Part shown: piece by piece, positions 3,110 through 58,930 of the stretch
Numbering within the stretch: the first letter of the stretch is position 1
How the letters are laid out: each line of letters starts with the position of its first letter
Assembly: GCF_004345825.1 (NCBI RefSeq)
Contig: NZ_SLXM01000001.1
Coordinates: 372,001 to 436,000, forward strand
Source: Tenacibaculum skagerrakense
GTDB taxonomy: Bacteria > Bacteroidota > Bacteroidia > Flavobacteriales > Flavobacteriaceae
Direction of reading: 5' to 3'
DNA length: 64,000 nucleotides
The notes under the pieces: model-generated
Database searches by the model: none
Told to the model about the DNA's origin: nothing
Seen by the model: only the letters and a program-made list of their open reading frames with translations
Translations under genes and position numbers: made by a program

Positions 3110-5929
3110 TTAAAATTTATACTTAAGACCTAACCCTAAGTTGATACCTCTATTATATTTTGAAAGGGTAACATCATCAGAGCCTGGAATTTCTCTTACT
3201 CTTTCGATCGCAGGGTCTAATAAATTTTTAGCACTAAAGTTTACTTCGAAGTGTTTACCTATTTCGTTTTTCCAAACAAAATCTAAGGTTGGCACTCCTT
3301 TTTGTACAATGTTTCCAGTACCAGAACCTAATGCGTAAATTCTATCTGAGAAATAAGAAAATACTAAGTTGGCAATAGGTTTAAAGTTTTCAAATTGAGT
3401 AGGAGAATAATCAATATTAGCATTGAAAATGTATGGTGATGCTCCTTGTAACTCATCAGAATCTCTGTTAAATGTAGCAGTAAATAAACCAGTAGTAGAT
3501 TTTAAATCCTGCTGCGTATGCATATAGGTAAAGTTAAATCCAAAACCTAATTGAGTTTGATCATCTTCGTTTTTAATTAAAGCCTTACGAACTTCTAATT
3601 CTGCACCAAACACCTCTGCTTGATCTCCAGTTCTAAAATAACGTTGAGTTCCAGTAGCATCATTAGCAATTACTAAGTTAACAGGGTCGTTTATTTGTTT
3701 GTAGAATCCTGTAAGCGATACTAATTCTCCTCTTGACATAAACCACTCATACTTTAAATCTAAGTTGTGAACTGCAGAAAAAGAAGGATCGTTTAATAAG
3801 TCAGAGTTACCTCCAATACGTTCTGTTACATCTTCGTAAACAAAAGGTGCTACTTCTTTAAATTCAGGAACAGATACCGTTTTAGCATATGATAAACGTA
3901 AGTTAGAATCGTCGGTAACTGAATACTTAACATTTAAATTTGGTAATAAGAATACTTCCTTTACTTTTCTAAATCCTGCATCATTAGGGTTTATGTTAAT
4001 TACATCGTAATCGATTCTTTGATCTAAATATTCTAATCTAACACCAGGAACGATAGTCCATTTATCATTTGGAGTAATGTTAGCCGATACATAAGAAGCA
4101 TGTATTCTTAATTGCCCGTTATATTCGTTTTCATTAGTACCTGGCAAGCTTACGAAATTACTATCAGCATAACCTGGAATCTTGTTGAATACTTCGATAT
4201 TGAATAACTTGTTTTGTTGATTTTGGAAAAATTGTGTGTTCTCTAAGTTAATTACCGAATCAATATTATTAGGGTCTACTTCAATATTATTACTTACAAA
4301 GTTGTAACCGTAACGAATATTTTCAAAATCTCTAGTTTTAATTCTTCCGTTATACCCGAAGTTTAAAGCTAAAACATCCGACGCGTTATACGTTATTTGT
4401 ACACGGCTATTTAATTCTTCGTCAATAATTCTTTGGAAGTAACGTTGGTTATCAAAAACGTTATTGTTGTAGAAAGTTGCGTTAGTAGTTGGATCATTAT
4501 CCAAAGAAAACTGATAATTTTCAATACTTACTCTTCGTCTATCTGGTTCATGAGCAAAAACGTTGTTATAACCGATTCCCCAAGTAACTTCTAATTCAGG
4601 AGTTTTATCACCATCATTTTCATAGAATTTATGATCACCAGTTAATTGATTTACAAAAACTAAATCTTGGTTGAACTGAACGTTCATTTGATAAAAACCT
4701 TCATCAGTATTTAAGATAGCATCTCTGTTTTCACCTAAACCTTTAAATCCATAGTAACCTACTTCATCCGATGAATTGTTTAAGAACATTGAAGTATACT
4801 TCAATTTGTTATTATCGTTGATTTTGTATAATGCTGTACCAAAAACAGTAGTTTTTGTAGAGTATTGATATTCTTTTGAGTTAGGGAACGACTTTTTAAA
4901 TACAGTGATAAAATCTACTGCAGGTCCTTCTCTATATTCGAAACCTCTTTCGAAAGAAGCTGTAGCATATAAACTTAATTTAGAATTATCTTCAAAGTTG
5001 AAGCTTCTACCAGCGCTTATTTCAAAGTTAGCATCAATAGGAGCACCTCCATCTACTGGGTCAATTCCGTGAGATAATACTCTAGCAAAAGGGTTACTTC
5101 CGTATCTTCCGTAAAAACCAAACTGACCAGTACCTTCACTTTTTACAAAGTTTTGTCCAGCAGCGCGAGAATTAACTCCACTTCCCACAGAAACTTCAAA
5201 CATTTCTTTTCCTGTAAATTCTTTTGAAGTAATATTTACATTACCAGCAGCAAAATCTCCATAAAATTCAGAAGCGTAAGCCTTACTAATTGATACGCTT
5301 TGAATAATGTTAGAAGAGAATAAGTTTAAGTCAATATTTTTCTTGTTAACATTGTTAGAAGGTAATGTTAAACCATTCATGGTAGTATTTAAATATCTAT
5401 CTCCTAAACCACGAACATAAACATTGCTATTACCTTCTTCTTTAGATACACCAGAAATTTTAGTAACTGCTCCTGCAGCGTCACTAACCCCTTTTTTAGC
5501 TAATTCTTGTGCTCCAATACTTTCTTTAATTACTGTAGCTTTCTTTTGCTCTAATAATAAAGCTGTTTCTTTATCTTTACTAACAGTAGCATTAATTTGC
5601 ACTTCTTTTAATTGCTCTCCACCACTAGCAGCCATTACTTGGTTGATAATGGTTGTTTTTCCTGCTTCTACTTTAACTGGCTTTTCTACAGTTTGATATC
5701 CCACAAAACTAAATACTAACGTATAATTACCAGGCGCTGCTGAAATAGTATATTTACCATCCATGTCAGTATTACCTCCTATCGAAGTACCTTTAATAAA
5801 TACGTTTGCAAAAGGTAATGGCTCGTTACTCATTTCTTTATCAGTAACTGTACCTGTTATAGTACCTTTATTTTGCGCGAAAATAAATTGAGTGAAGCTT
5901 ATTAAAGCTAATATTAAAATTTTTCTCAT
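3110..5929 (-). CDS. TonB-dependent outer-membrane receptor with carboxypeptidase-regulatory-like domain
   Basis: A 939-residue receptor. It has a signal peptide (ends IFAQ), an N-terminal CarboxypepD_reg-like beta-sandwich (about 22-108, GTITGTVTDKE), a plug domain (about 130-235, with VYVRGLGDRYLNTTMNG) and a large beta-barrel ending in the C-terminal Phe needed for BAM assembly (LGLKYKF). It would import a large or scarce substrate with TonB-ExbBD energy. It sits directly upstream of the beta-helix lipoprotein. A direct repeat at 6035-6052 lies in its upstream region. No SusD partner is present, so a classic polysaccharide locus is unlikely. Confidence 0.88.
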   Translation of the reverse strand: MRKILILALISFTQFIFAQNKGTITGTVTDKEMSNEPLPFANVFIKGTSIGGNTDMDGKYTISAAPGNYTLVFSFVGYQTVEKPVKVEAGKTTIINQVMAASGGEQLKEVQINATVSKDKETALLLEQKKATVIKESIGAQELAKKGVSDAAGAVTKISGVSKEEGNSNVYVRGLGDRYLNTTMNGLTLPSNNVNKKNIDLNLFSSNIIQSVSISKAYASEFYGDFAAGNVNITSKEFTGKEMFEVSVGSGVNSRAAGQNFVKSEGTGQFGFYGRYGSNPFARVLSHGIDPVDGGAPIDANFEISAGRSFNFEDNSKLSLYATASFERGFEYREGPAVDFITVFKKSFPNSKEYQYSTKTTVFGTALYKINDNNKLKYTSMFLNNSSDEVGYYGFKGLGENRDAILNTDEGFYQMNVQFNQDLVFVNQLTGDHKFYENDGDKTPELEVTWGIGYNNVFAHEPDRRRVSIENYQFSLDNDPTTNATFYNNNVFDNQRYFQRIIDEELNSRVQITYNASDVLALNFGYNGRIKTRDFENIRYGYNFVSNNIEVDPNNIDSVINLENTQFFQNQQNKLFNIEVFNKIPGYADSNFVSLPGTNENEYNGQLRIHASYVSANITPNDKWTIVPGVRLEYLDQRIDYDVININPNDAGFRKVKEVFLLPNLNVKYSVTDDSNLRLSYAKTVSVPEFKEVAPFVYEDVTERIGGNSDLLNDPSFSAVHNLDLKYEWFMSRGELVSLTGFYKQINDPVNLVIANDATGTQRYFRTGDQAEVFGAELEVRKALIKNEDDQTQLGFGFNFTYMHTQQDLKSTTGLFTATFNRDSDELQGASPYIFNANIDYSPTQFENFKPIANLVFSYFSDRIYALGSGTGNIVQKGVPTLDFVWKNEIGKHFEVNFSAKNLLDPAIERVREIPGSDDVTLSKYNRGINLGLGLKYKF

Positions 5930-6076: not shown

Positions 6077-8365
6077 TTAGTTATTTAAAAATTTTAAAGA
6101 AAGAAAATAAGTCCTTGGTCTTGAAGGGCCATAAATGTAATTGGCATCTCTATCAGCGCCTTGATCTAAATCATTTTGATAACTATCGAAAATATTTTGT
6201 ACTCCTATGCTAACTCTTAACTGAGAATGATTATGGCTATCTAAAGAAAAATCGTAGGAAGATTTTACATTGAGTTCGAAAAAGTCTTTTGTTTTCTCTA
6301 GTGTATCTTCAGAAATAAAACCAGCTAAGTGCGGCACATACATACTGCCAGTATAAACTGCTGATATATTATTTTGAAATTTTTTAGTTGGAGCAAATGT
6401 AGCAATCAGGTTTCCATAAATATTTGGAGATTTAAAAAAGTTGTCTGCATTTTCTAAGGAAATAGTAGCGTCATCAGACCATTGTACAGGCTTGTCAAAC
6501 TTTCCTTCTTGAATGGTTGCACCAGCTTGTAAAATCCATTTTTCATTTGGAGCGTATTTCGTTTCAATATTAAAACCTTTTACATATGCATTATCTCCAT
6601 TTCTCTTTTCCCAAATGAAATCATTTAATTGTTCTAATATAAATGGATTTACAATTTTTGTGTAAAAAGCTTCAATTGTAAATGATAGCTCTCCTTTTGT
6701 TAAGGATGTATTCCAATCGAATGAGGTAGTAAAACTATGAGAGGTTTCAGACACTAAAGTTGAAGGATCTACACGAACAGTTAGTACTTCTCCAGCAGCT
6801 ATTTGAGCATGTAAATCTTCAGTAAATACTTGTGGAGCTCTAAATCCTTTTGCATAGGAAACTCTAAAACGTGCATTTTCATTGGCAAAATACATGATGT
6901 TTAAACGAGGATTAAAGATTACACTTTCATCTGTTAAGTTGTGAATATCGGCTCTTAATCCTCCTAAAACTTTCCACTGTTTGTTTATAGTCCATTCTTG
7001 TTGTGCATAAATTCCGTAGGTTCTTAAAGTTTGATTAACAAAAGCGTTAAAACCAGGTTTTTCATCCTTCATTTTATCATACTTAAACTCAAAGCCTCCA
7101 GTAAAATTTCCTTTACCTCCCAAGAAATTAGCTAATTTATGTGCGTATTGAGATCCTAGTACCCAGGTCTCATCTCTTGAATTTCCAAAACCTAATACAA
7201 TCCCGTTTTGAGCTACTAAATCTTCACCGCCGCCGTAATAATTTTTATTCTTAGAGCGAGAGGTAGATACATAAGCCGAAAAATGTTGTTTTCCTTCGTT
7301 AATTGACGATTCAAATGTAAGCCCTCCAGTTAATACATCAGAATCAATTTGTTCAGCTACATCACTTTCAAAAGGTTGTAGTCCCAGTTTGTTTCCTCCT
7401 CGTCTGAATTCACTTATAGAGCTAAATTCTGCTGTTAATCTAGCATTGTCTGAAGGCTTTATATATCCTTTAAATCCAAATGTCTGCGATTCTAACTTGG
7501 TTAATTCGGTAAAAGTATCTCCATCATAATCATAAGGGTTTCTATTTCTATACATACCGAAATATGTTAATCCAGAAGAAGCCTCATCATTAACAACGGT
7601 TCCATTTACCGTAGTTGCTATGTCTAATGTTTCACCTTTAATTAAAGATACATTTTGACCAACTTGAAATGTATTATCAACAGGGTCTTTTGTAATAATA
7701 TTGATAGTACCAGCAATAGCGTTGGCACCATATAAAGCAGAACCACCGCCGCGAACTACTTCAATGCGGTCTATACTATTTGCAGGAATTTGATCTAAAC
7801 CATACACACCATTTAAAGCACTAAAAATAGGACGACTATCTACAAGAATTTGTGAATATGCTCCATCTAATCCATTTATACGAACTTGTGAAAAACCGCA
7901 ATTCTGACAATTCGTTTCCATGCGTAAACCAGGTTGAAAGTTTAATCCTTCAGATAAACTAACAGATTGTGTTGCTTCTAGTAGTTTTGCATCGGTAACA
8001 GTAACAATTACTGGAGCTACTTTTCTGTTTAAATAAGATCGTGTAGCACTCACTACAACTTGGTCTAAACCTAGCAAATCTTCTTCGAGTGCAATGTTTA
8101 TGGTGGTTATTTCTGAATTACTTAAGTCAACTTCTTTTTCAACAATTTTAAAACCAATACTTTGAAAAACTAAGGTTACTTTCGTTTGATTGAGCTCTAA
8201 TATGAAGTCTCCATCATCGTTTGTACTAGTTCCTTTTGATTTGTCTTTTGAATACACAGAAACAAATTCCATTGGTTTTCCCTTAAAACTAACTTTTCCT
8301 TTAACAGTTTGAGCGAAAGTAATAACGCTTGTAAATACTAAAAATACGTGTAGAAAAGACTTCAT
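6077..8365 (-). CDS. TonB-dependent receptor, probably for metal or metal chelate
   Basis: A 762-residue receptor. It has a signal peptide (ends TFAQ), a carboxypeptidase-regulatory-like domain (21-95), a plug (about 110-230) and a barrel ending near YFLSLKFLNN. The plug carries a CxxC pair (NCQNCGFSQVRINGL, C153 and C156) and DSRPIFSALNGVYGLDQIP, typical of a Bacteroidota receptor subgroup. The gene is divergent from the DtxR/MntR-type regulator and ZIP transporter, and a DtxR-type inverted repeat lies between them next to its -7 element. I therefore infer uptake of Mn, Fe or Zn (or a chelate) under metal control. The barrel ends without the usual terminal aromatic residue. Confidence 0.85.
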   Translation of the reverse strand: MKSFLHVFLVFTSVITFAQTVKGKVSFKGKPMEFVSVYSKDKSKGTSTNDDGDFILELNQTKVTLVFQSIGFKIVEKEVDLSNSEITTINIALEEDLLGLDQVVVSATRSYLNRKVAPVIVTVTDAKLLEATQSVSLSEGLNFQPGLRMETNCQNCGFSQVRINGLDGAYSQILVDSRPIFSALNGVYGLDQIPANSIDRIEVVRGGGSALYGANAIAGTINIITKDPVDNTFQVGQNVSLIKGETLDIATTVNGTVVNDEASSGLTYFGMYRNRNPYDYDGDTFTELTKLESQTFGFKGYIKPSDNARLTAEFSSISEFRRGGNKLGLQPFESDVAEQIDSDVLTGGLTFESSINEGKQHFSAYVSTSRSKNKNYYGGGEDLVAQNGIVLGFGNSRDETWVLGSQYAHKLANFLGGKGNFTGGFEFKYDKMKDEKPGFNAFVNQTLRTYGIYAQQEWTINKQWKVLGGLRADIHNLTDESVIFNPRLNIMYFANENARFRVSYAKGFRAPQVFTEDLHAQIAAGEVLTVRVDPSTLVSETSHSFTTSFDWNTSLTKGELSFTIEAFYTKIVNPFILEQLNDFIWEKRNGDNAYVKGFNIETKYAPNEKWILQAGATIQEGKFDKPVQWSDDATISLENADNFFKSPNIYGNLIATFAPTKKFQNNISAVYTGSMYVPHLAGFISEDTLEKTKDFFELNVKSSYDFSLDSHNHSQLRVSIGVQNIFDSYQNDLDQGADRDANYIYGPSRPRTYFLSLKFLNN

Positions 8366-57787: not shown

Positions 57788-58273
57788 ATGACGAAAGAGT
57801 TAGCTGTAATTATAGTTCAAATTAACAACCAAATAGAAGTCTCTCTAAAAAAGTTAATGACCATTAAACAATTACAGCAGCTTTTTTCACAAGAAGCTAC
57901 TTTTACAACAGATCTTCTAGAAAACTTTATTCTTAGTAATGATAATATTCTTGAAAAAATTTTTCTTCATGTAAATGATTCTTACATTAGTTTAGAAATC
58001 GACTCAATTATTAAATGTGAAGCCTCTGGAAATTACACAAAGTTTTATACTGATGAGGGTAAAGAGTATTTAGTATCAAAGCCATTGAAATATTATGACA
58101 ATTTTTTCTCAAAAAAGTATTTTTTTAGAGCTAGTAGATCTACTCTCGTTAATATGAAATTTGTGCAATCCATTTATAAAAAAGAAGCTATTATTCTATC
58201 AACTGGTGAAAAAATTATTGTCTCTTCTAGAAATAAAAATAAGTTATTGAGTTTTATTCTCGATCGCACTTAA
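57788..58273 (+). CDS. LytTR-family DNA-binding regulator, stand-alone
   Basis: 161 residues. The LytTR domain covers about 62-160: IFLHVNDSYISLEIDSIIKCEASGNYTKFYT, read in parts, and the recognition region FFRASRSTLVNMKFV. The N-terminal 60 residues are not a receiver domain, and no histidine kinase lies nearby. LytTR proteins such as AgrA and ComE commonly control peptide signalling and bacteriocin genes. Two GG-leader peptide genes begin 108 bp downstream on the same strand. Confidence 0.85.
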   Translation: MTKELAVIIVQINNQIEVSLKKLMTIKQLQQLFSQEATFTTDLLENFILSNDNILEKIFLHVNDSYISLEIDSIIKCEASGNYTKFYTDEGKEYLVSKPLKYYDNFFSKKYFFRASRSTLVNMKFVQSIYKKEAIILSTGEKIIVSSRNKNKLLSFILDRT

Positions 58274-58316
58274 AACCTAAAATACATACTTTAAAAAATT
58301 ATTCTCTACGCTTATC

Positions 58317-58336
58317 AATACTATTATAAAATACTA
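58317..58336. promoter_or_regulatory. Short direct repeat before the peptide genes
   Basis: AATACTA at 58317-58323 and 58330-58336, a 13-bp period, about 45 bp before the first peptide gene. It might be a regulator site, but LytTR repeats are usually about 21 bp apart, so the link is weak. Confidence 0.2.
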
Positions 58337-58381
58337 ATAATTATTAAATAGTTTTATTGAAACTTTTAAAAATTCAATAAA

Positions 58382-58648
58382 ATGAAAAAATCAATTTTAA
58401 GCTTAGGAAAGGCTTTAAAAAAAAATGATCAGAAAGAGATTAAAGGGGGAAATCCGTTATTGTTAGAATGCCAATATCAGTGCAATGGAAAAAATTATGA
58501 ATTGATTCCAGGTCAAGGAAGTGAATGTTATTTAAATTATCCTGCAATTATTACTAACCATCCAAATTGTGGAGGTTCAGGAGGCTCAACTGGAACTGGT
58601 GGTGGAGGTATTCGTCCTACTGGAGGAGGAATTGAAGTTTGGGCATAA
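58382..58648 (+). CDS. Double-glycine leader peptide precursor 1
   Basis: 88 residues. Leader of 23 residues, MKKSILSLGKALKKNDQ then KEIKGG, ending in Gly-Gly, as in bacteriocins and pheromones exported by C39-peptidase ABC transporters. The core (24-88) has Cys at 30, 34, 49 and 63 and a Gly-rich tail (about 64-83), so it may be disulfide-bonded or modified. It is 108 bp after the LytTR gene and 32 bp before a paralogue. No transporter or modifying enzyme is within the window. Confidence 0.75.
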   Translation: MKKSILSLGKALKKNDQKEIKGGNPLLLECQYQCNGKNYELIPGQGSECYLNYPAIITNHPNCGGSGGSTGTGGGGIRPTGGGIEVWA

Positions 58649-58680
58649 TTTACGAATTGAAACAATTAAAGCTTAAGAAA

Positions 58681-58869
58681 ATGAAAAAATCAATTTTAAA
58701 TTTAGGAAAAGCTATCAATAAGAATTCTCAAAGAGTAATTAGTGGAGGTTTTGGTTCTTTAAATTACCAATGCCCCAACGGAGGAAGAGCCTTAGTAGGT
58801 TGCATTAACGGAACTTTAATAGGATTTTGTGCTGGCGGGGTTACTGTAGATTTTGGACCTTGCCGATAG
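58681..58869 (+). CDS. Double-glycine leader peptide precursor 2
   Basis: 62 residues from the ATG at 58681, chosen because the family leader begins there (an in-frame TTG lies 42 bases earlier). The 23-residue leader MKKSILNLGKAINKNSQ then RVISGG matches precursor 1 at most positions. The 39-residue core has Cys at 31, 41, 50 and 61 with Gly-rich loops, and is unlike the first core. Conserved leader with variable core is the usual pattern of secreted peptide families. Confidence 0.78.
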   Translation: MKKSILNLGKAINKNSQRVISGGFGSLNYQCPNGGRALVGCINGTLIGFCAGGVTVDFGPCR

Positions 58870-58897
58870 TTTTAATTATTAAAAACCAATAAATAAA

Positions 58898-58930
58898 AAA
58901 ACATCACTTTTATAAGTGGTGTTTTTTTTT
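58898..58930 (+). terminator. Terminator after the peptide genes
   Basis: Stem AACATCACTT / AAGTGGTGTT (one G-T pair) followed by a long T-run. Confidence 0.8.

What the first reader, a model, noticed from the sequence alone, without database searches (positions are those of the whole stretch)
57788..58930. LytTR regulator followed by two tandem double-glycine leader peptides
Two small genes with near-identical 23-residue leaders ending in GG but unrelated Cys-rich cores (four Cys each) follow a kinase-less LytTR protein and end at one terminator. In Firmicutes this combination marks peptide quorum sensing or bacteriocin loci. Here no C39 transporter, immunity gene or modifying enzyme is adjacent, so export must use a distant transporter. 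The core sequences match no class I recognise, making this the best candidate for an undescribed peptide system.
Basis: partly seen in the sequence, partly recalled or inferred. Interest (0 to 1): 0.75.

Follow-up and report, generated by a model that had tools for sequence, protein, structure and literature searches.

The report
Outlying pair of exported disulfide peptides
A marine Tenacibaculum carries, behind a small DNA-binding protein, two precursors of probably secreted cysteine-rich peptides whose likely export and disulfide machine lies far away in the genome, and the wider peptide class to which they belong is often preceded by a conserved RNA fold that we did not find in the RNA library searched.

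Summary
At 57788-58930 a LytTR-domain protein without receiver or kinase precedes two GG-leader precursors (88 and 62 aa; leaders 16/23 identical; four Cys each) and a strong terminator-like hairpin. The block is syntenic and under purifying selection in three Tenacibaculum genomes.

The peptides are not isolated. A leader query finds 17 such precursors in the genome; nine sit on contig 4 with a C39-ABC exporter, an HlyD adaptor and a C39-like/VKOR/thioredoxin fusion, probably a disulfide-forming enzyme. Relatives of both cores lie inside such clusters. Of 381 Cys-containing cores of this class, 356 have an even Cys number, as expected for disulfides. Of 13 genomes with the first core, 12 have the fusion (48 of 166 overall). 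Likeliest reading: export, GG cleavage and oxidation by the distant machine; activity unknown.

LytTR control is plausible but weak: G160 (and G207 as far as its contig goes) keeps the peptide at this site without LytTR, G218 keeps LytTR without GG peptides.

Many other genes of the class are preceded by an H-type pseudoknot with strong covariation, unmatched in Rfam 15 and absent from the window; 46 of the 48 Tenacibaculum genomes with it also have the fusion. Closest known system: bacteroidetocins.

The parts
57788..58273 (+). stand-alone LytTR DNA-binding protein, 161 aa, no receiver and no kinase domain found (LytTR domain at 57980-58249)
   Evidence: PF04397 57.7 bits; G000:C1:429980-430249; orthologues in G279, G246, G218
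58274..58381 (+). intergenic region before the first peptide; candidate regulatory region. Contains an AT-rich 9-bp inverted repeat 58353-58361 / 58373-58381 just before the ATG (significance untested)
   Evidence: sequence; alignment with two relatives; no match to the pseudoknot RNA model R1 at E <= 1
58382..58648 (+). GG-leader precursor 1, 88 aa; leader 58382-58450, core 58451-58645 with four Cys and a Gly-rich tail
   Evidence: family alignment A3 of 13 sequences with the four Cys invariant
58681..58869 (+). GG-leader precursor 2, 62 aa; leader 58681-58749, core 58750-58866 with four Cys
   Evidence: family alignment A4 of 5 sequences with the four Cys invariant
58895..58928 (+). terminator-like hairpin with T run, likely end of the peptide transcript
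   Evidence: fold -15.2 kcal/mol, z -5.15

Best explanation
The block is an outlying branch of a Flavobacteriaceae system of secreted, disulfide-bonded peptides. The two genes encode precursors with a 23-residue leader. The leader is recognised and cut after GG by the C39-ABC exporter encoded on contig 4 together with an HlyD adaptor. Each core is oxidised to two disulfides by the C39-like/VKOR/thioredoxin fusion protein of the same cluster. The products are most likely narrow-spectrum antibacterial (bacteriocin-like) peptides, comparable to bacteroidetocins. The stand-alone LytTR protein probably sets transcription of the pair from 58274-58381, in place of the RNA element that precedes many other members. 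Shown here: gene anatomy, conservation, purifying selection, kinship of both cores with peptides inside exporter clusters, co-occurrence with the fusion enzyme, even Cys numbers in the class. Inferred: export by that machine, disulfides, LytTR control, antibacterial activity.
For: 17 leader matches in the genome, nine beside the contig-4 exporter; C39-ABC and HlyD domains, and P0004 with C39-like, VKOR and Thioredoxin_4 domains. Core 1 relatives lie inside clusters with fusion, exporter and HlyD in L182-L186 and L188-L190; core 2 relatives in the own cluster and in L189. Core 1 present in 13 of 166 genus genomes, 12 of which have the fusion against 48 of 166 overall (hypergeometric p 1.2e-6, not corrected for kinship). 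Even Cys number in 356 of 381 Cys-containing cores of 382 distinct peptides (simulated fraction 0.50 +/- 0.03); even modal number in 140 of 147 core families with Cys. Pairwise dN/dS 0.15-0.22 for peptide 1, 0.04-0.21 for peptide 2, 0.08-0.22 for LytTR. The other C39 proteins of the genome lie in different surroundings: contig 5 with precursors of class I lanthipeptide leader type, and a 14-kb region of contig 7 in which no GG precursor of this leader type was found.
Against: No expression or activity data. No immunity gene recognised. Export by the contig-4 machine rests on leader similarity and co-occurrence. LytTR and peptide come and go independently at this site (G160, G207, G218). LytTR matched in only 5 of 59 named loci of the fusion. 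Some core families break the even rule: family 9 has five Cys in all 9 members, family 6 in 4 of 10. Relatedness inflates the parity and co-occurrence statistics.
Confidence: 0.6

Rival explanations
1. Signalling: one or both peptides are pheromones sensed outside the cytoplasm by a TPR-histidine kinase that works through LytTR regulators; the window LytTR is an output branch without its own kinase.
For: TPR-kinase plus LytTR response regulator lie in the same locus as the fusion in L099, L100, L119, L121 (strong matches in 4 of 30 family loci, weak ones in L105 and L107) and in L214, L237, L249 (3 of 59 named loci). In G218 the orthologous LytTR sits beside such a pair. The LytTRs with a GG peptide within about 1.5 kb (4 of 58 loci) are among those closest to the window one (rank test p 0.0015; 0.006 without the orthologue).
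Against: No kinase gene in the window among PF06580 matches or flanking ORFs scanned. LytTR genes are common (22 in this genome); by my rough hand estimate the number near the fusion gene is not clearly above chance. 17 peptides in one genome would be unusual for pheromones (general knowledge).
Confidence: 0.2
2. The LytTR gene is a mere neighbour; the peptides have their own promoter and no regulatory link to it. (Concerns regulation only; compatible with export and disulfides as in the best explanation.)
For: Core 1 at the same site without LytTR in G160, and in G207 as far as its contig goes; LytTR without GG peptides in G218.
Against: LytTR plus both peptides kept together in three species, same strand, 108 bp apart, all under purifying selection; similar LytTRs beside GG peptides elsewhere.
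Confidence: 0.3
3. Lanthipeptide precursors: Cys react with dehydrated Ser/Thr to thioethers by a lanthipeptide enzyme encoded elsewhere in the genome.
For: The genome has a lanthipeptide-type locus, L030, with a class I lanthipeptide leader match.
Against: No lanthipeptide leader family matched P0001 or P0002; even Cys numbers; a VKOR/thioredoxin-type enzyme in the cluster; different leader at the lanthipeptide locus.
Confidence: 0.05
4. Secreted disulfide-rich peptides with another role (protease inhibitors, defence against predators, effects on a host or alga) rather than killing of bacteria. (Concerns activity only.)
For: Very diverse cores, 148 families among 382 peptides, no immunity genes recognised; two weak EGF-like matches below cut-off in one peptide.
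Against: Nothing specific; general resemblance to bacteroidetocins favours antibacterial action (PMC6671954, passages read).
Confidence: 0.3

Closest known systems
Bacteroidetocins A and B (Bacteroides; Nat Commun 2019, PMC6671954, passages read)
   Different: Leader 15 aa against 23 here; one peptide in a four-gene region against 17 precursors in one genome; here an HlyD adaptor and a C39-like/VKOR/thioredoxin fusion; the window pair is remote from all of these. Sequence similarity of the cores was not compared.
Class II bacteriocin or pheromone loci with LytTR regulators in Firmicutes (recalled)
   Same: LytTR protein beside GG-leader peptide genes
   Different: No membrane kinase, no receiver domain, no local exporter
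NCBIfam NF047798, Chryseobacterium bacteriocin-like leader
   Same: Short GG leader in Flavobacteriia; best match 12.9 bits for the G246 homologue of peptide 1
   Different: Below its cut-off of 23.5 bits; no match for the window peptides
VKOR-thioredoxin fusions (recalled) and DsbA-like enzymes
   Same: VKOR and thioredoxin-type domains with invariant Cys pairs; the model of a homologue resembles ScsC/DsbA proteins
   Different: Extra N-terminal C39-like domain, without any Cys in P0004
H-type pseudoknot riboswitches such as preQ1-I or SAM-II (recalled)
   Same: Small pseudoknot upstream of coding genes
   Different: No Rfam match to the element; found mainly before GG-leader peptide genes; no ligand known

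Membership tests
GG-leader peptides exported by C39-ABC transporters | leader ending in GG with hydrophobic pattern | tested here: met
GG-leader peptides exported by C39-ABC transporters | C39-ABC exporter in the same genome with neighbours of the same leader type | tested here: met
   contig 4
GG-leader peptides exported by C39-ABC transporters | cleavage after GG and export | not testable with these tools
   needs mass spectrometry
Bacteroidetocins | 15-16 residue leader | tested here: not met
   23 residues; paper passages
Bacteroidetocins | adjacent ABC exporter, thiol oxidoreductase and TM protein | tested here: not met
   none among ten flanking ORFs; exporter and fusion enzyme on contig 4
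Bacteroidetocins | core sequence similarity | not tested
   no bacteroidetocin sequence was fetched
Lanthipeptides | lanthipeptide leader family | tested here: not met
   0 NCBIfam matches for P0001, P0002 at E <= 1
Lanthipeptides | LanM or LanB/LanC in the gene neighbourhood | tested here: not met
   none among ten flanking ORFs of the window; contig 4 only looked at by eye
NF047798 bacteriocin-like leader | score over cut-off | tested here: not met
   12.9 against 23.5 bits for the G246 homologue; none for the window peptides
LytTR regulators | LytTR domain | tested here: met
   57.7 bits, cut-off 22.6
LytTR response regulators of two-component systems | receiver domain | tested here: not met
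   only LytTR found
Three-component peptide quorum sensing | adjacent sensor kinase | tested here: not met
   none of the 12 PF06580 matches of the genome lies in the window; none among ten flanking ORFs
Known Rfam RNA families (for the pseudoknot element) | score over gathering threshold | tested here: not met
   no match at the element in L022, L023 or L103, L111, L121 at E <= 1; other loci not scanned

The most novel reading that the evidence does not exclude
A new class of cis-acting RNA, a 5' hairpin followed by an H-type pseudoknot at a nearly fixed distance before the start codon, controls a large and much reshuffled set of secreted disulfide peptides in Flavobacteriaceae. The peptides are oxidised by a dedicated enzyme in which a dead C39 domain serves to hold the leader. 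The window pair is a branch outside this RNA control, under a stand-alone LytTR protein.
Probability: 0.4. Interest if true: 0.85.

Novelty: new variant of a known kind. Interest (0 to 1): 0.66.

Why it matters
It links an apparently orphan peptide pair to a large secretion system: 382 distinct precursors in 148 core families in the loci examined, which the ten full-text searches made here did not find described. It makes two questions testable: how a multi-peptide set is exported and oxidised in Bacteroidota, and what a conserved pseudoknot before many genes of the class reads. The natural contrast between RNA-preceded and LytTR-linked members helps to ask how they are regulated.

Tried and rejected
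A scan of genome contigs with the LytTR protein alone gave no relative. Solved-structure searches by sequence gave nothing for P0004, P0003 or the first peptide family and, for the second, only weak matches (best E 0.07) to one unrelated enzyme. The structure prediction of peptide 1 was uninformative (pLDDT 51.6). Rfam gave only matches below the gathering scores near the window block. I looked for a Bacteroidota promoter pattern (TAnnTTTG, recalled) in the 60 bases before the RNA elements: 7 of 229 against a mean of 6.2 in shuffles, so no support. I considered a DNA operator instead of an RNA: compensatory changes with varying sequence in the second helix argue for RNA, but the 5' palindrome could still be a DNA site. 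Single-strand folding without pseudoknots is not clearly better than shuffles for the four elements folded (z -1.31 to 0.11). A search for any 5+5-pair pseudoknot finds one in 253 of 271 elements but also in 60 of 271 mononucleotide shuffles, so the mere presence of one in a single sequence proves little; the covariation is the argument. A general excess of LytTR genes near the fusion gene is not shown: by hand estimate from 22 LytTR per 3.7 Mb, about 3 expected and 6 seen within 3 kb over 89 loci. The Fisher figure (4 of 9 against 0 of 49) used a cut-off chosen after seeing the data; the rank test is fairer but still rests on the stored best-matching loci only. A first count of 14 of 15 genomes was mended to 12 of 13 after two leader-only matches were recognised. 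On which side of the membrane the C39-like domain of the fusion lies is not settled: hydropathy shows several membrane segments, but by eye charge and Cys positions conflict.

Full report
What is in the window. The LytTR protein (57788-58273, 161 aa) has only a LytTR domain, 57.7 bits. It is followed on the same strand by two precursors of 88 and 62 aa and a hairpin with a T run. The leaders are 23 residues long and share 16 of 23 positions. Neither peptide matches Pfam or NCBIfam at E <= 1. Ten flanking ORFs have other functions.

Conservation. The complete block, LytTR plus both peptides, lies between the same acyltransferase-like and OmpA-like genes in G246 and G279. Pairwise dN/dS is 0.15-0.22 for peptide 1, 0.04-0.21 for peptide 2 and 0.08-0.22 for LytTR (ratios; short sequences, dS partly near saturation). 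The precursor 1 query matches 15 of 166 genomes of the genus at E <= 1e-6; in two of them, G272 and G238, only the leader agrees, so the core is present in 13 (for G207 this rests on 67% identity over residues 3-88, since my ORF filter did not list it). In G160 it lies at the same site without LytTR (L180). In G207 its match lies beside the same OmpA-like gene and the same other neighbours as in G160 as far as the contig goes (L181). In G218 the LytTR orthologue is at the site beside a TPR-kinase and a full LytTR response regulator; no GG peptide of this class was found there, though a 126-aa ORF that a loose first pattern flagged lies nearby. So the two parts are linked but separable.

The exporter. 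The genome has four C39 matches. Two are on contig 4: a C39-ABC transporter and the N-terminal domain of P0004, a fusion of C39-like, VKOR and Thioredoxin_4 domains. An HlyD-family protein and nine precursors lie next to them. A query with the second leader finds 17 places in the genome at E <= 10: the window pair, nine on contig 4 and six single genes elsewhere. Peptide 2 has a paralogue in the cluster, L022:5296-5487, 54% identical. In other Tenacibaculum genomes, relatives of peptide 1 lie inside clusters with fusion, exporter and HlyD matches (L182-L186, L188-L190; not L187) and a relative of peptide 2 in L189. The C39-like domain of P0004 has no Cys, so it cannot be a cysteine peptidase. 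A model of a homologue (pLDDT 77.3, pTM 0.40) resembles DsbA/ScsC proteins, and lower in the list the ComA peptidase domain and PCAT1. That the domain holds the leader is inference.

Distribution. P0004 relatives were found in 21 of 149 genomes of the family, 31 matches, and in 48 of 166 of the genus. I fetched all 31 matches as 30 loci: 28 have at least one GG precursor by a loose pattern and 21 have both exporter and HlyD in range (counted by hand). Of 59 named loci, 52 have a GG precursor by such a pattern, 43 an ABC exporter, 41 HlyD and 5 a LytTR; several of these loci are cut by contig ends. Of the 13 genomes with core 1, 12 have the fusion; the exception, G160, is 67% complete (p 1.2e-6, not corrected for kinship).

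Disulfides. Among 382 distinct GG peptides gathered from the loci, 381 have Cys in the core and 356 of these have an even number (simulation with the same Cys frequency: 0.496 +/- 0.026). Grouped into 148 core families, the commonest Cys number is even in 140 of 147 families with Cys. Cys is nearly absent from leaders (3 of 8816 residues). All 16 own-genome peptides listed are even; the seventeenth, with a variant leader, has eight by eye. Exceptions: family 9 has five Cys in all 9 members, family 6 in 4 of 10. The peptides were chosen by a pattern for the leader, not for Cys, but relatives are counted separately.

LytTR link. In 58 loci around LytTR matches, 4 have a GG precursor in the stored flanks of about 1.5 kb. 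The 58 are the stored best matches, 29 (107 of 149 genomes matched) and 29 (60 of 116 matched), without the window itself. The four lie among the LytTRs most similar to the window one (rank test p 0.0015; 0.006 without the orthologue). Fusion loci have TPR-kinase plus LytTR in 4 of 30 loci with strong matches and 2 with weak ones, and in 3 of 59 named loci. These facts support a connection, not a mechanism.

An RNA element. While comparing upstream regions I found a conserved element before five contig-4 peptides and the single gene L023. A sequence profile from these six gave 271 matches in the loci searched, which overlap in part (229 unique). 238 of the 271 have a GG-precursor ORF within 400 bases downstream, mostly at close spacing; some of the rest precede precursors with variant GG sites. 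The core is an H-type pseudoknot: AGACAC/GTGTCT and, interleaved, CCTTGA/TCAAGG. On all 103 elements of a set thinned to below 86% identity, 95.3% of cells pair, nine of 12 pairs show changes on both sides, and the covariation score is 0.267 against 0.137 +/- 0.007 in shuffles (0 of 500), with all slid versions much lower; all six pairs of the second helix have such changes. A first count on 70 of them, picked by hand, gave 95.6% and 0.329. A 5' hairpin is less sure: 77.8% of cells paired on 63 sequences from which seven with a deviating 5' part had been left out; there four of six second-helix pairs changed on both sides. Pseudoknots of five plus five pairs also occur in 60 of 271 plain shuffles. 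The sequences are related and were collected with a profile, so the controls are not probabilities; but pairing played no part in the collection. Rfam 15 has no match at it in the five loci scanned.

Genome-wide, without reference to the fusion, a covariance model from the 70 sequences finds the element in 48 of 166 Tenacibaculum genomes. 46 of these are among the 48 with the fusion (Fisher 5e-36, not corrected for kinship). In the family sample it is in 23 of 149, 17 shared with the 21 that have the fusion; six have the element without the fusion, four the fusion without the element. Of 60 loci from these searches, 55 have a GG-precursor ORF next by a loose pattern; one of the 55 (L307) is doubtful, in eight loci I examined another copy than the model's match, and the set overlaps the earlier one. 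A start codon of a small ORF lies 68-80 bases after the conserved TCGCG in 206 of 217 elements that have one. 232 of 271 elements follow the stop of a same-strand ORF of at least 40 aa within 100 bases (partly chance), so many may lie inside longer messages. In the own genome the model finds six matches on contig 4 and one at L023, none in the window at E <= 1 and none in the G246 and G279 blocks. GG peptides beside full LytTR regulators in G226 and G160, and beside the LytTR gene in G018, do have it, at E 1e-6 to 5e-4. Five of the own single genes and several inner cluster genes also lack it. The window pair is thus not alone in lacking the element.

Literature. Ten full-text searches listed no paper that by title or abstract start describes this system (one search showed 20 of 46 papers); for all but two papers I saw only the search listing. 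Of PMC6671954 I read twelve passages, of PMC2864571 nine passages including parts of its motif table. Subscription papers and preprints are mostly not in that library, so absence from print is not shown.

Verdict. An ordinary-looking anatomy, correctly observed, that turns out to be an outlying branch of a large, little described system of probably exported disulfide peptides. Export and oxidation by the distant machine are supported by comparison only; LytTR control and biological activity remain open. The most surprising result, the pseudoknot element, lies outside the window and is reported as a candidate.

Noticed in passing
L022:8601-8664 (-), 6228-6291 (-), 5489-5552 (-), 5217-5280 (-), 5747-5811 (-); L023:5104-5168 (-): Conserved H-type pseudoknot element before GG-precursor genes, no Rfam 15 match in the loci scanned; the strongest lead beyond the window.
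   Followed up: yes
L022:11374-11437 (-): A diverged copy of the element after the fusion gene, followed by a very short ORF; in G246 the corresponding slot holds a peptide 1 relative.
   Followed up: partly
L030:332-7651: Lanthipeptide-type locus on contig 5 of the same genome with four short precursor-like ORFs (the one tested matches the class I lanthipeptide leader family), a LanM-like match and a thiopeptide-type enzyme domain.
   Followed up: partly
core family 9, for example L182:6296-6490 (-): A conserved core with five Cys in all 9 members, against the even rule; perhaps a dimer or a further modification.
   Followed up: no
G059 (L100, L111, L112): 19 element matches spread over the genome and three fusion genes, the largest set in the family sample.
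   Followed up: no
L303: Element before a 175-aa ORF that by eye looks like a lipoprotein rather than a GG precursor.
   Followed up: no
L113:8705-8776 (-) and similar: Some elements carry a 5' TGAACA that could pair with TGTTCA, overlapping the second helix: a possible alternative fold.
   Followed up: no
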